In this document: one piece after another, positions 44,909-50,927 of the stretch
How the letters are laid out: every line of letters starts with the position of its first letter
How positions within the stretch are numbered: the stretch's first letter is position 1
Assembly (NCBI RefSeq): GCF_013409205.1
Contig: NZ_JACCAE010000001.1
Location: 2,170,001-2,234,000, forward strand
Direction of reading: 5' to 3'
DNA length: 64,000 nucleotides
From: Janibacter cremeus
GTDB taxonomy: Bacteria > Actinomycetota > Actinomycetes > Actinomycetales > Dermatophilaceae
Notes under the pieces: generated by a model
What the model saw: the letters and a program-made list of their open reading frames with translations, nothing else
What the model was told of the DNA's origin: nothing
Database searches by the model: none
Program-made: the position numbers and the translations under genes

Positions 44909-45508
44909 GTGTATGAAGGTGTGGTCCAGGACCTGATCGACGAGCTCGGCCGACTGCCCGGGGTCGGTCCCAAGAGTGCCCAGAGGATCGCCTTCCACCT
45001 CCTGCAGGCCGACCCGCAGGACGTCCAACGGCTGGTCCAGACCCTCAGCGAGGTCAAGGACAAGGTCTCCTTCTGCGAGACGTGCGGCAACGTCGCCGAG
45101 GGCCCGCAGTGCCGCATCTGTGCCGACACCCGTCGGGATCCCAGCGCCATCTGTGTGGTCGAGGAGCCCAAGGACGTCATCGCGATCGAGCGCACCCGCG
45201 AGTTCCGCGGCCGCTACCACGTCCTCGGCGGGGCGATCTCCCCGATGGACGGTGTGGGCCCGGACGACCTGCGGTTCACCGAGCTGATGTCGCGGCTGTC
45301 CGACGGCAGCGTCGCCGAGGTGATCATCGCGACCGACCCGAACCTCGAGGGGGAGGCCACCGCGTCCTACACGGCCCGGCTGCTCTCTCCCTTCGGGATC
45401 AAGGTCACCCGTCTGGCCTCCGGGCTGCCCGTGGGCGGTGACCTCGAGTACGCCGACGAGGTGACCCTCGGTCGCGCGTTCGAAGGGAGGAAGTTGCTCG
45501 ATGCCTGA
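44909..45508 (+). CDS. recR: Recombination protein RecR
   Basis: 199 aa from a [27 protein letters not shown] is the helix-hairpin-helix, the zinc finger is [16 protein letters not shown] (about 56-71), and the TOPRIM domain (about 80-175) has [13 protein letters not shown] and [14 protein letters not shown]. RecR works with RecO/RecF to load RecA at gaps. It overlaps the DUF5063 gene by 8 bp. Confidence 0.97.
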
Positions 45509-46055
45509 CGAGACCACCCTGCTGGCCGACGAGTGCGCCGCGGAGGCGAGCGCTTGGCTGGCCACCGTCGCCGAGATCGCCTCGGGTGCCGCTCCCGAGA
45601 GCGCCATCCCGCTCCTGCTGCTCACGACGAGCCAGATCCAGCTCGTGGGCGCCCGGCTCGGAGCGATCAACGACATCGTGCTCGAGCAGCGCTTCGAGGA
45701 CGACGCGGGCCCCGACACCGACCTCGACCCTTTGCGTACCGGACTGGCCCAGTTGCTGTCCGAGGTCGACGAGTACGGCGACGTCGCCGACCCGGTCACC
45801 TCGCCGGAGCCGACGACCGGCTCGTTGAGCAATGACCTGGCGATCATCGCCGGCGCGCTCACGCACGGGCTGGCCCATCACGGGGCCGGACGGACGACAG
45901 AGGCGCTGTGGTGGTGGCAGTACAGCTACCTCGCCGACTGGGGCGACCGCGCGGCGATGGCCGTGCGGGTGCTGCAGACGCTGCTCGCGCACCTGCGGCT
46001 GGACGCCGACGATGACATCGTCGGTGAGGCCGAGTTCGACGCGCTGCACTCCTGA
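45501..46055 (+). CDS. DUF5063 domain protein
   Basis: 184 aa. The ATG lies inside the recR end (8-bp overlap), so translation is coupled. It is all-helical by composition, with [42 protein letters not shown] and [44 protein letters not shown]5063 proteins are found next to recR across actinobacteria and have no assigned role. Constant linkage suggests a part in recombinational repair or replication restart; that is inference. Confidence 0.85.
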
Positions 46056-46256: not shown

Positions 46257-47531
46257 TTGAGTCTGGTTGTCCAGAAGTACGGCGGTTCCTCGCTCGGTGA
46301 TGCCGAGAGCATCAAGCGAGTCGCACACCGCATCGTCGAGACGAAGAAGGCGGGCAACGACGTATGTGTCGTCGTCTCCGCCATGGGTGACAGCACCGAT
46401 GAGTTGCTGGATCTCGCCGAGCAGGTCAGTCCGGTTCCTCCACCACGCGAGATGGACATGCTGCTGACCGCCGGCGAGCGGATCTCGATGGCGCTCGTCG
46501 CTATGGCCATCGCCGACCTCGGCCACAGCGTGCGCTCCTTCACCGGGAGCCAGGCGGGGGTCATCACCGACACCTCGCACGGCAAGGCGAAGATCATCGA
46601 CGTCACGCCCGGCCGCATCACCGAGGCGCTGGGCAAGAAGCACATCGTCATCGTCGCCGGGTTCCAGGGAGTCAGCCAGGGGACGAAGGAGATCACGACC
46701 CTCGGCCGAGGTGGCTCCGACACGACCGCGGTGGCGCTCGCGGCCGCGCTCGAGGCCGACGTGTGCGAGATCTACACCGACGTCGACGGAATTTTCACCG
46801 CCGATCCGCGCATCGTCTCCAAGGCGCACAAGATCGACCGCATCTCCCACGACGAGATGCTGGAGATGGCCGCCAGTGGCGCCAAGATCCTCCACCTGCG
46901 GTGCGTGGAGTACGCGCGTCGCTCCGAGATGCCCATCCACGTGCGTTCGTCCTTCTCCCCGAAGGAGGGCACGTGGGTCCTGCCCCCCGAGACCGAAGGA
47001 AACCAGGACATGGAAGAGCCCATCATCGCCGGCGTCGCGCACGACGCCAGTGAAGCCAAGATCACCGTCGTCGGCGTGCCGGACGAGCCGGGCCGTGCCG
47101 CGCAGATCTTCAGGACCGTGGCCGACGCCCAGGTCAACATCGACATGATCGTGCAGAACGTCTCCGAGTCGGAGACCGCCCGCACCGACATCTCCTTCAC
47201 GCTGCCGATGGCAGACGGGCAGGTCGCCGTCGAGGCGTTGATGGAGACGAAGGACGAGGTCGGCTTCGAGTCGATCCAGTACGACGACCAGATCGGCAAG
47301 CTGTCGTTGATCGGTGCCGGCATGCGCACCAACCCGGGTGTCTCCGCGACTTTCTTCAAGGCACTTGCCGAGGCGGACATCAACATCGAGATGATCTCGA
47401 CCTCCGAGATCCGCATCTCCGTGGTCACGCGCGCCGACCAGCTCGACGGCGCGCTCCAAGCGCTGCACACGGCCTTCGGCCTGGACTCCGATGACGGCGA
47501 GGCCGTTGTCTACGCGGGCACCGGGCGGTGA
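46257..47531 (+). CDS. lysC: Aspartate kinase
   Basis: 424 aa from a TTG at 46257, with GGAG about 10 bp upstream. [14 protein letters not shown] starts the kinase domain, [13 protein letters not shown] and [17 protein letters not shown] follow, and two ACT domains (about 265-420) provide feedback control by lysine/threonine. It phosphorylates aspartate as the first step to lysine, threonine, methionine and diaminopimelate. As in Corynebacterium, an internal start could give a separate regulatory subunit. The stop overlaps the next gene by 4 bp. That gene would normally be asd; here its product lacks the catalytic Cys. Confidence 0.97.
47010..47531 (+). CDS. lysC: Internal start for aspartate kinase beta (regulatory) subunit
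   Basis: An in-frame ATG at 47010 has GAAGGA 9 bp upstream and would give a 173-aa protein, [19 protein letters not shown]..., consisting of the two ACT domains. Corynebacterium and Bacillus aspartate kinases make such a beta subunit from the same gene, starting at the equivalent residue (about 250). This supports an alpha2-beta2 enzyme but is not proven by sequence. Confidence 0.5.
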
Positions 47532-48625
47532 CCGCGTCCCCGTCGCCGACCACCGGGCCGACTCTGGCCCTGGTGGGGGCGACGGGGCGCTTCGCGCAGG
47601 CCATTGCCGCTGCGCTCGCCCTGCGGGATGACTCGTGGGGCGAGATCCGGCTCTACACGCCGGGGGTGTCCACCCGCACCCTGACCGTGCGCGGTCGCGA
47701 GCAGCCGGTGGAGACCCTTCGGGAGGACTCTTTCGGCGGTGTTGACGTCGCGCTGTTCAACCTCTCGTCGGACCAGACCAGGGAATGGGCACCTCGGGCG
47801 GTTGCCGCCGGTGCGGTCGTCGTCGATGCGAGCTCGACGCACCGCGGGGATGACGACGTCCCGTTGGTCGTCCCGGGCATCAACTCCGAGTTGGTGGCCC
47901 ACCGTCCCCGCGGCATCGTGGCCCTGCCCGGGCCAGTCACGTGGGGACTCATCGACGCGGCGCACGTCCTGCACCAGGGCTGGGAGCTGCAGCATCTCGT
48001 CGTCACCGGGCTCATCGCTGCGGTGTCAGCGTCCGACCGTGGCGTGGCCCGACTGCGCGAGGAGCTGCACACCGTCGCCTCCGAGCCGACGATCGGGCAG
48101 CACCCGGGGGACGTGCGAGGGGCCGTGTCGGACCTGCCAGTCGCTTCTCCCTTCCCGGCGCCGTTGGCGCTCAACGTCATCCCGTGGGTGGGGCAGCCGA
48201 CGGACGACGGCTTCACCTCGGCCGAGCGGGCGGTCGACCAGGAGGTGCGCAAGGTCCTCGACCTCGCGGACACGGTCCCCGTCGTGGTCACCCTCGTCCA
48301 GGTGCCGGTCGTCCTGGCGCACTCGATGGCGTTGCACGCGCGGTGCGCGCGACCGGTGTCCACGGACAAGATCCGAGCGGCATGTGTGGCCGCACCGTCC
48401 CTGGTCCACCTCGACGAGCGGACCGGAGAGGTGCCCACGCCGGTCGACAGCGTGGGCATCGACCCGCGCTTCGTGGGCCGGATCCGGCAGCCGAAGGGAG
48501 CTGGGCACCACATCGACATGTTCGTCAGCGCAGACACCACCCGTAGGGGGGCGACCGCGATGCTCGCCGTCGCGGAGTTGATCGGGCACGAACGACGTGA
48601 GGGCATGTCTGCGCAGTGGACCTGA
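47528..48625 (+). CDS. Aspartate-semialdehyde dehydrogenase homologue lacking the catalytic Cys
   Basis: 365 aa from a GTG overlapping lysC. The fold is recognisable: [10 protein letters not shown] (nucleotide loop), [63 protein letters not shown] (the His region) and [13 protein letters not shown]. But the active-site PNCT segment reads ALPGPVTW, so the nucleophilic Cys is gone. By motif alignment the Gln of TYQAVSGAG is Ala (IAAVSA) and the Lys of the EExKM segment is Ala (AERAV). The substrate Arg seems kept. Bases are unambiguous, with no frameshift. It is probably not a working Asd; a regulatory partner of LysC or a new activity are options, and a true asd should exist elsewhere. Confidence 0.85.
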
Positions 48626-48807: not shown

Positions 48808-49731
48808 ATGACCGATCAGAATCAGGGTACGGACCCGCACGACGAGGGGCCCGTGTCGTATCGCGTTGTGGGCTTCGACGAGCTCGAGGGTGCCGCAGCC
48901 AGGCACTTCCGTCGGCAGCGTCGCCGCCGACTCATCCTCTTCGTCACCCTGCCCGGCCTCGTGCTGGGCACAGCGACAGTCGCTGCGGCCTACAGCACCG
49001 GTCTGCTCGGCATGAAGGAGACCGTGGCGTGTGCTCCGGTCTCCGCTGAGGCACCTGAGCGCGAGTCCTTCAAGATCAAGCTCCTCAACAGCGCCGACAC
49101 CGCCGGTCTGGCGAGCGAGGTCGGGCGCGAGTTGGAGTTGCGTGACTTCAAGGTCGCCTCGATCGGGAACGCGGACAGTTCCGTCTATGTCGAGGGGCCC
49201 GCCACGATCTACTTCGGTGACGAGGGCCTGGAGAACGCCCTGCTGGTGCAGAAGCAGATCCCCGGCTCCCAGTTGTGGAACGACGCCCGGTCCGGGGACA
49301 GCGTCCAGCTCGTGCTCGGATACGGCTTCGAAAAGCTCGTCGGCGAGCCCGACCCGCCGCTGCCGGCTCCCTCGGAGATCGCCCTCAACGTCTACAACAC
49401 GACGTGGCACGTGGGGCTGGCCGCTGACGTGAGCAAGACTCTCGAGCAGCGCGAATTCACGGTCAAGAAGACGGGCAACGATCCGCAGATGTCCTTCCTC
49501 GAGAAGGAGGTCGGGGTCATCCGCTTCGGTCCCGAGGGAGAGCGAGCCGCCAAACGGCTGGCCGAGCAGGTCGAGGACGTCCAGATGCAGAAGGACGACC
49601 GCAGCGGCACCACGCTCGACCTGGTCCTCGGCAACAAGTGGGATGGGCTGAAGCCGCAGACCAAGGTCCCGCAGGTCGAGCCCTACGAGCGTCCGCCAGA
49701 GACGATCCAGTTGCCCTGCGAGAGCGAGTGA
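48808..49731 (+). CDS. Membrane-anchored protein with two LytR_C domains
   Basis: 307 aa, with GGGGAGG 7 bp upstream of the ATG. The cytoplasmic head of about 45 residues ends in RRQRRRR, and one membrane helix follows (about 46-66). Two tandem LytR_C domains are FKIKLLNSADTAGLASEVGRELELRDF (from about 88) and IALNVYNTTWHVGLAADVSKTLEQREF (from about 192), each ending in a VLGxxxDGL-like strand. There is no LCP catalytic domain. A duplicated LytR_C unit points to a polymer-binding or scaffold role in wall assembly. Its stop overlaps the phosphofructokinase start (GTGA), an odd partner for a wall protein. Confidence 0.88.
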   Translation: MTDQNQGTDPHDEGPVSYRVVGFDELEGAAARHFRRQRRRRLILFVTLPGLVLGTATVAAAYSTGLLGMKETVACAPVSAEAPERESFKIKLLNSADTAGLASEVGRELELRDFKVASIGNADSSVYVEGPATIYFGDEGLENALLVQKQIPGSQLWNDARSGDSVQLVLGYGFEKLVGEPDPPLPAPSEIALNVYNTTWHVGLAADVSKTLEQREFTVKKTGNDPQMSFLEKEVGVIRFGPEGERAAKRLAEQVEDVQMQKDDRSGTTLDLVLGNKWDGLKPQTKVPQVEPYERPPETIQLPCESE

Positions 49732-50927
49732 GCGTTCGCACAGTTGCGATGCTGACGGCCGGGGGCATCGCCCCGTGCCTCTCGTCCGCGGTCGGCGGCC
49801 TCATCGAGGGCTACACCCGGCGCGCCCCGCAGGCGCGTCTCATCGGCTACCTCGACGGCTACGCCGGGCTGCTCGAGGGCCGCAGCATCGAGGTCACCGA
49901 CGAGGTGCGGGCCACCGCCGACCGACTGCACTCTTTCGGTGGCTCCCCGCTCGGCAACTCCCGGGTCAAGCTGACCAATGCCCAGGACCTCGCCCGACGC
50001 GGTCTCGTGGCCGAGGGGGCGGACCCCCTTCGCATCGCAGCGGAGCAGCTGGTCAAGGATGGCGTCGACGTCCTGCACACGATCGGCGGCGATGACACCA
50101 ACACCACGGCCGCCGACCTCGCGCGCCACCTCGCGGAGCACGGCCATGATCTGAGGGTGATCGGACTACCCAAGACGATCGACAACGACATCGTCCCGAT
50201 CCGGCAGAGCCTGGGGGCGTGGACCGCAGCGGAGCAGGGAGCGGTCTTCGCCCGCAACATCATCGGGGAGCACTCATCGAACCCCCGGATGCTCATCGTC
50301 CACGAGGTCATGGGCCGCCACAGCGGCTGGCTCACGGCCGAGACCGCGCGTCGGTACCGCGAGCAGCTGCTCGAGCGCGAGTTCGTGCCCGGTATCGGCA
50401 ACGACCCGCGCCGGTGGGACGTGCACGCGGTCTACGTCCCGGAGGTGCCTGTCGATCTCGACGCCGAGGGAGACCGGCTCAGGGAGGTCATGGATGCCAT
50501 CGGGTGCGTCAATGTCTTCATCGCGGAAGGTGCCGGTGTCGACGACATCGTCGCCTCGCTCGAGGCCTCCGGGCAGCAGGTACCGCGCGACGCGTTCGGC
50601 CACGTCGCCCTCGACGAGGTCAACCCCGGCGCGTACTTCGCGGAGAACTTCGCCGAGCGGCTCGGTGCGCACAAGGCCAAGGTGTGGAAGTCGGGGTACT
50701 TCGCCCGCTCCTCCGCTCCGAACGCCCGGGACCGGGAGCTGATTGCCCGCTGCACCGACCTGGCGGTCGAGACCGCGCTCGACGGGGGCTCGGGTGTCAT
50801 CGGCCAGGACGTGGAACGCGGCGACGAGCTGCGCGCGATCGAACTGGACCGCATCGCCGGTGGTGGCGCCTTCGACCCGACCGTCGACTGGTTCGTCGAT
50901 CTGCGTGGAGCCATCGGCCAGATCTGA
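49728..50927 (+). CDS. pfp: 6-phosphofructokinase, probably PPi-dependent
   Basis: 399 aa from a GTG overlapping the upstream gene by 4 bp. TAGGIAPCLSSAVGGLI, HTIGGDDTNTTAADLA and LPKTIDNDI form the phosphofructokinase site. In ATP-dependent enzymes the GGDGS loop has Gly after GGD; here it is GGDDT, with the extra Asp that blocks ATP and marks PPi-dependent enzymes. The DEVNPGAYFAE and KVWKSGYFARSS segments are typical of this actinobacterial clade. It interconverts fructose 6-phosphate and fructose 1,6-bisphosphate reversibly. Confidence 0.9.
   Translation: MSVRTVAMLTAGGIAPCLSSAVGGLIEGYTRRAPQARLIGYLDGYAGLLEGRSIEVTDEVRATADRLHSFGGSPLGNSRVKLTNAQDLARRGLVAEGADPLRIAAEQLVKDGVDVLHTIGGDDTNTTAADLARHLAEHGHDLRVIGLPKTIDNDIVPIRQSLGAWTAAEQGAVFARNIIGEHSSNPRMLIVHEVMGRHSGWLTAETARRYREQLLEREFVPGIGNDPRRWDVHAVYVPEVPVDLDAEGDRLREVMDAIGCVNVFIAEGAGVDDIVASLEASGQQVPRDAFGHVALDEVNPGAYFAENFAERLGAHKAKVWKSGYFARSSAPNARDRELIARCTDLAVETALDGGSGVIGQDVERGDELRAIELDRIAGGGAFDPTVDWFVDLRGAIGQI

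What the first reader, a model, noticed from the sequence alone, without database searches (positions are those of the whole stretch)
47528..48625. Aspartate-semialdehyde dehydrogenase homologue without its catalytic cysteine, coupled to lysC
The protein keeps the Asd fold and its usual place after lysC, but the PNCT active-site segment reads LPGPVT, so the Cys nucleophile is missing. The conserved Gln and the EExKM Lys also appear replaced by Ala. The frame is intact over 365 codons and coupled to lysC, so it is not a fresh pseudogene. It may be a repurposed regulator or scaffold for aspartate kinase, or a new enzyme.
Basis: partly seen in the sequence, partly recalled or inferred. Interest (0 to 1): 0.75.

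Follow-up and report, generated by a model that had tools for sequence, protein, structure and literature searches.

The report
Dead twin of a lysine-pathway enzyme
Next to the aspartate kinase gene, Janibacter and many relatives keep an intact copy of the next pathway enzyme that has lost its active-site residues, while a second, normal copy elsewhere can do the chemistry; this suggests the dead copy was kept for a non-catalytic job such as regulation.

Summary
The window (a Janibacter-like genome) has an intact 365-codon Asd-fold gene at 47528-48625, overlapping lysC by GTGA. A second, fully equipped Asd lies elsewhere in the genome. Nine named Janibacter records share the Pro, Ile and Gln, so it is no sequencing error. 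The gene descends from a lysC-linked Asd ("type B") of many actinomycetes, usually intact where it is the only Asd. In the window's family, 81 of 99 type-B proteins found in 149 genomes lack the Cys; all 99 lie behind lysC; dN/dS of Cys-less same-genus pairs is 0.04-0.33. One clade has Ala at the Cys site with the other substrate residues kept in 40 of 41. Loss occurred many times, also in a Streptomyces-sized genus, and nearly always where another Asd exists. This is a retained pseudoenzyme. Its function is not shown; likeliest is a non-catalytic partner of AsdA and/or LysC. E. coli Usg shows a similar loss but belongs to another family. Ten searches of an open-access library found no description.

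The parts
46257..47531 (+). lysC, aspartate kinase (AA_kinase + ACT domains); the only lysC match in the genome
47528..48625 (+). asdB', type-B Asd-fold protein without catalytic residues (365 aa, GTG start)
47528..47531 (+). GTGA overlap of the asdB' start with the lysC stop (translational coupling inferred)
   Evidence: read directly
47924..47941 (+). active-site segment L-P-G-P-V-T (codons 133-138) in place of N-P-N-C-T-T
48014..48016 (+). codon 163, Ile in place of the conserved Gln
48221..48232 (+). codons 232-235, A-E-R-A in place of E-E-x-K
48299..48301 (+). codon 258, Gln in place of the substrate-binding Arg
48320..48322 (+). codon 265, active-site His retained

Best explanation
The gene encodes a conserved pseudoenzyme. 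The ancestral lysC-linked type-B Asd became redundant in lineages that also carry a type-A Asd, lost its catalytic residues (repeatedly, in different ways), and was kept as an intact protein encoded directly behind lysC. Shown: loss of the nucleophile and partner residues, an Asd fold (model), a canonical second Asd, lysC linkage, purifying selection, repeated loss. Inferred: it has no Asd activity, and it works as a non-catalytic partner, either a hetero-oligomer subunit that tunes AsdA or a scaffold/allosteric subunit that holds LysC and helps to hand over the unstable aspartyl phosphate. The clade with Cys-to-Ala but intact ligand residues would be a ligand-sensing form; Janibacter, with the substrate Arg and Gln gone as well, a purely structural or re-targeted form.
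For: Six of eight site residues lost here, all eight present in the second Asd of the genome. H. influenzae Asd mutants in the PDB titles are at R103, C136, E243, K246, R270 and H277, and their spacing fits the columns scored. Family: 81 of 99 type-B proteins lack the Cys, in 27 genera, all 81 of 351-396 aa; lysC lies upstream on the same strand in 99 of 99, with asdA between in 21. dN/dS of same-genus pairs with 0.1<dS<1: Janibacter median 0.204 (36 pairs), Ala clade 0.145 (108 pairs, 7 genera), other Cys-less with lost Arg 0.168 (19 pairs), intact type B 0.099 (13 pairs). A clade of 41 rows, found on a tree built without the active-site columns (SH-aLRT 94), has G-A for N-C in 41 of 41 and keeps the six other scored residues in 40 of 41. 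Of 77 Cys-less cases in genomes at least 90% complete, 74 have a full canonical Asd, 2 a fragment and 1 none; of 11 fully intact ones, 9 have none. Outside the family, 75 of 76 type-B proteins from genomes with one Asd match are fully intact (53 of 53, 19 of 19, 3 of 4).
Against: No binding, activity or expression data. 48 of 149 family genomes have a match of type A but none of type B, so the role is dispensable. Selection is weaker than on lysC or intact type B in most comparisons, as slow decay would also give. Partner not identified. In the Streptomyces-sized genus about half of the type-B proteins are intact although a second Asd is nearly always there. The link with a second Asd has no formal phylogenetic support: too few independent contrasts differ.
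Confidence: 0.6

Rival explanations
1. Slowly decaying redundant paralogue without a function of its own, kept for now by its place behind lysC.
For: Loss is seen nearly always where a second Asd exists; catalytic residues drift in many directions in the Streptomyces-sized genus; 48 of 149 family genomes lack type B.
Against: Full-length frames in 81 of 81 Cys-less proteins of the family and dN/dS 0.04-0.33; one Ala clade of 41 rows in 10 genus codes with the same G-A pair throughout and the other ligand residues kept in 40 of 41; retention in 27 genera.
Confidence: 0.22
2. Repurposed enzyme: the fold, part of the nucleotide site, Arg106 and His265 serve a different, Cys-independent reaction or another substrate.
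For: Gln-to-Ile and Arg-to-Gln with His kept both in Janibacter and in E. coli Usg; Arg/Gln state needs at least 7 changes on the tree.
Against: Other site residues vary between lineages; the third Gly of GxxGxxG is Ala in the Janibacter group; place behind lysC points to the same pathway.
Confidence: 0.12
3. Active Asd that uses another residue.
For: Scores just above the NCBIfam PRK14874 cut-off (225.6 versus 223).
Against: Six of eight site residues replaced, and a canonical Asd is in the same genome.
Confidence: 0.03

Closest known systems
Aspartate-semialdehyde dehydrogenase, bacterial type (TIGR01296 / PRK14874; 3tz6, 2gz3)
   Different: No nucleophilic Cys; Gln, Glu, Lys and substrate Arg replaced; fails the asd_B cut-off (198.6 versus 324.2).
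USG-1 / E. coli Usg (NF005957; pdxB-usg-truA)
   Same: Asd homologue without the Cys; Gln to Ile and Arg to Gln with His kept.
   Different: Far below the Usg cut-off (118.9 versus 273); other operon; on the tree Usg is a very long branch whose place is unsure. I know of no established function for Usg (recall).
HisZ of ATP phosphoribosyltransferase
   Same: Analogy only: a regulatory protein that activates the first enzyme of an amino-acid pathway (start of abstract of PMC9734150, seen); that it is a dead paralogue of histidyl-tRNA synthetase is recalled.
   Different: Unrelated fold; no complex is shown here.

Membership tests
Aspartate-semialdehyde dehydrogenase (active enzyme) | Asd fold, NAD-binding and dimerisation domains | tested here: met
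Aspartate-semialdehyde dehydrogenase (active enzyme) | nucleophilic Cys in PNCT | tested here: not met
   Pro136
Aspartate-semialdehyde dehydrogenase (active enzyme) | conserved Gln, Glu, Lys and substrate Arg | tested here: not met
   Ile163, Ala232, Ala235, Gln258
Aspartate-semialdehyde dehydrogenase (active enzyme) | active-site His and first substrate Arg | tested here: met
   His265, Arg106
Aspartate-semialdehyde dehydrogenase (active enzyme) | score above curated model cut-offs | tested here: inconclusive
   PRK14874 225.6 versus 223 passed; asd_B 198.6 versus 324.2 failed
Aspartate-semialdehyde dehydrogenase (active enzyme) | catalytic activity | not testable with these tools
   needs assay or complementation
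USG-1 / Usg family (NF005957) | score above family cut-off | tested here: not met
   118.9 versus 273 bits
USG-1 / Usg family (NF005957) | loss of Cys with Gln-to-Ile and Arg-to-Gln, His kept (pattern seen in one Usg, not a published definition) | tested here: met
   read as convergence
Type-B, lysC-linked actinomycete Asd (clade named here) | groups with type B apart from type A, and lies behind lysC | tested here: met
Pseudoenzyme (retained, catalytically dead paralogue) | catalytic residues lost, frame intact, purifying selection | tested here: met
Pseudoenzyme (retained, catalytically dead paralogue) | demonstrated non-catalytic function | not testable with these tools
   no experiment available
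Pseudogene | broken frame or neutral evolution | tested here: not met

The most novel reading that the evidence does not exclude
Actinomycetes have repeatedly turned the lysC-linked Asd into a dedicated non-catalytic subunit of the aspartate pathway: a ligand-sensing or structural partner that controls LysC and/or AsdA. This would be a regulatory layer on the supply of lysine, threonine, methionine and diaminopimelate, evolved many times in parallel and now likely to be annotated as an ordinary enzyme.
Probability: 0.4. Interest if true: 0.8.

Novelty: new variant of a known kind. Interest (0 to 1): 0.62.

Why it matters
The aspartate pathway feeds the cell wall and several amino acids and is a target of strain engineering and drug discovery. 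The dead proteins pass NCBIfam's general Asd model (PRK14874, cut-off 223 bits: 225.6 for the window's protein, 362.5 for an Ala-clade member, 295.3 for a tandem-type member), so automatic annotation is likely to name the lysC neighbour as the working Asd when the working one lies elsewhere. Repeated loss of catalysis without loss of the gene is a natural experiment on what a metabolic enzyme does besides catalysis, and a deletion plus pull-down would test it directly.

Tried and rejected
Sequencing error: rejected by nine named Janibacter records. Fresh pseudogene: rejected by frames and dN/dS. Restricted to Janibacter: rejected. Member of the Usg family: cut-off not met. Distance-correlation test for the partner: partial r(B,A given lysC) 0.53, partial r(B,lysC given A) 0.36, 21 genomes; both exceed nearly all of 2000 permutations, as shared descent alone would give, and there was no outside control gene; inconclusive. 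Independent contrasts of Cys loss against presence of a second Asd: 10 pairs on well-supported branches, most not differing in the second trait; for loss of any of the eight residues 5 pairs; no conclusion.

Results against the simple rule. Three family genomes carry a fully intact type B plus a canonical Asd (G041, G086, G107) and three more a type B that keeps the Cys but not all eight residues plus a canonical Asd. Two f47 genomes have both types intact, and four f33 genomes have an intact type B plus a divergent Asd-like gene. In the Streptomyces-sized genus about half of the type-B proteins are intact although only one of the 91 genomes with type B has a single Asd match; most of the others there keep the Cys and some may be active. 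Five Cys-less family cases have no full canonical copy (three none, two a fragment), all in drafts of 160-410 contigs. G158 is degenerate with no second Asd found, at 91% completeness.

Limits. The 53 single-Asd proteins were the best-scoring ones; the 19 were chosen lower in the ranking to offset this. In some searches only 7 candidates a genome were scored, so a second Asd could have been missed there. Groups were picked by motif, so the state of the scored columns within them is by construction; the clade evidence is that. dN/dS is a simple pairwise estimate from my own script. flags one stop inside the match for several type-B genes; read outwards from the middle of the match, all 81 Cys-less frames are 351-396 aa, so those stops lie at the far end of the match. 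Trees are quick ones with many weak branches and long-branch warnings. Two Asd rows are the same gene (L206 and L233).

Full report

Second Asd. The same genome (one contig, 100% complete) holds one other Asd-like gene, at G000:C1:2967287-2968297, with the full set of residues, and a single lysC match. In nine of nine named Janibacter records the Cys, Gln and Arg columns carry the same Pro, Ile and Gln, while the Glu and Lys columns read Ala, Ser or Thr; that excludes a sequencing error.

Family survey. Of 149 genomes drawn from the window's family, 99 in 34 genera carry the window's type of Asd, which I call type B; I fetched all 99. All lie downstream of lysC on the same strand, and in 21 a canonical type-A asd sits between. 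Type B lacks the Cys in 81 of 99 (27 genera), has all eight residues in 15 (7 genera), and keeps the Cys but not all eight in 3. In two tandem-type proteins (L096, L100) a Cys stands one position earlier; they are counted as Cys-less. All 33 type-A proteins among the loci have all eight residues. Of the other 50 genomes, 48 have type A only and 2 (58% and 75% complete) no match.

Relation to the second Asd. Among genomes at least 90% complete, 74 of 77 with a Cys-less type B have a full canonical Asd, 2 a fragment and 1 none; 9 of 11 with a fully intact type B have none. In a thinned set of 212 type-B rows, 131 of 133 rows with any of the eight residues changed come from genomes with another Asd, against 41 of 79 intact rows. 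A test on the tree had too few informative contrasts; exceptions are listed under Tried and rejected.

Origin. Outside the family, type B is the lysC-linked Asd of many actinomycete families. In genomes with one Asd match it has all eight residues in 53 of 53 (best-scoring), 19 of 19 (lower-scoring) and 3 of 4 (low-scoring; one of them cut by a contig end), the exception being G158. It is degenerate in G163 and G304, both of which carry a type-A Asd. One search examined 89 of them: 43 fully intact, 46 with at least one of eight residues changed, 8 of these without the Cys. On a 273-row tree built without the scored columns, the Cys state needs at least 13 changes, 11 of them forced by well-supported branches; counting losses only, there are 17 events including E. 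coli Usg.

Selection. Pairwise Nei-Gojobori dN/dS (own script; same-genus pairs, dS 0.1-1): Janibacter 0.10-0.32 (median 0.204), Ala clade 0.04-0.27 (0.145), other Cys-less with the Arg lost 0.07-0.33 (0.168), intact type B 0.03-0.22 (0.099). In the Streptomyces-sized genus three groups of changed proteins have medians 0.146, 0.187 and 0.231 against 0.150 for intact ones (pairs capped at 25-40). All 81 Cys-less family proteins are 351-396 aa. Of 120 columns at least 97% conserved in intact type B, 87 are kept in the Ala group, 75 in the Janibacter group, 74 in the tandem group and 94 in the changed proteins of the large genus. On the tree, built without the active-site columns, 41 rows from 10 genus codes form a clade (SH-aLRT 94, not starred) in which N-C is G-A in 41 of 41 and the six other scored residues are kept in 40 of 41. 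That is not what random decay gives; it fits a protein that can still bind ligand but not turn it over. Janibacter has gone further.

Function. Not shown. The lysC linkage points to LysC; the presence of a second Asd wherever the site is lost, and the oligomeric nature of Asd (recalled), point to AsdA. A correlation test among 21 loci with all three genes leaned slightly to AsdA but has no outside control. I commit to 'non-catalytic partner of AsdA and/or LysC' at 0.6 with the partner open; on rechecking I moved 0.02 from it to the decay rival, because 48 of 149 family genomes lack the gene and selection in the large genus hardly differs between intact and changed proteins.

Known relatives. 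E. coli Usg also lacks the Cys and shows Gln-to-Ile and Arg-to-Gln with His kept, but it scores in another NCBIfam family, for which the window's protein is far below the cut-off; I read the likeness as convergence. In PMC6358828 (passages seen) usg is called a putative Asd and linked to intracellular survival of Salmonella. HisZ is an analogy (listing and starts of abstracts). The passages of PMC2705460 that I saw mention no aspartate kinase-Asd fusion. Ten searches of the open-access library (listings seen) showed no paper on this; most subscription journals and all preprints are not held, so absence from print is not established.

Annotation. The window's protein and representatives of the Ala clade and the tandem group pass the NCBIfam PRK14874 cut-off, and the Ala-clade one also passes asd_B (330.9 versus 324.2). 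They are likely to be labelled as active Asd in public genomes; I did not look at public labels.

Noticed in passing
   Followed up: no
L056, L077, L086-L088, L090, L093, L096-L109: Tandem lysC-asdA-asdB' in 21 family genomes, with asdB' lacking the Cys at its usual place in 21 of 21.
   Followed up: yes
L096 and L100, second Asd of the locus: A Cys appears one residue before the lost catalytic position.
   Followed up: no
G452, G466, G518, G551: A further divergent Asd-like gene, 42-46% identical to the canonical query, in genomes with an intact type B.
   Followed up: no
L241:3637-4650: E. coli Usg lacks the Asd Cys, Gln and substrate Arg, so it looks like an Asd pseudoenzyme as well.
   Followed up: partly
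window 45501-46055: DUF5063 protein just upstream of lysC.
   Followed up: no
window 48808-49731 and 49638-50927: LytR_C-domain protein and a phosphofructokinase-family protein downstream of asdB'.
   Followed up: no
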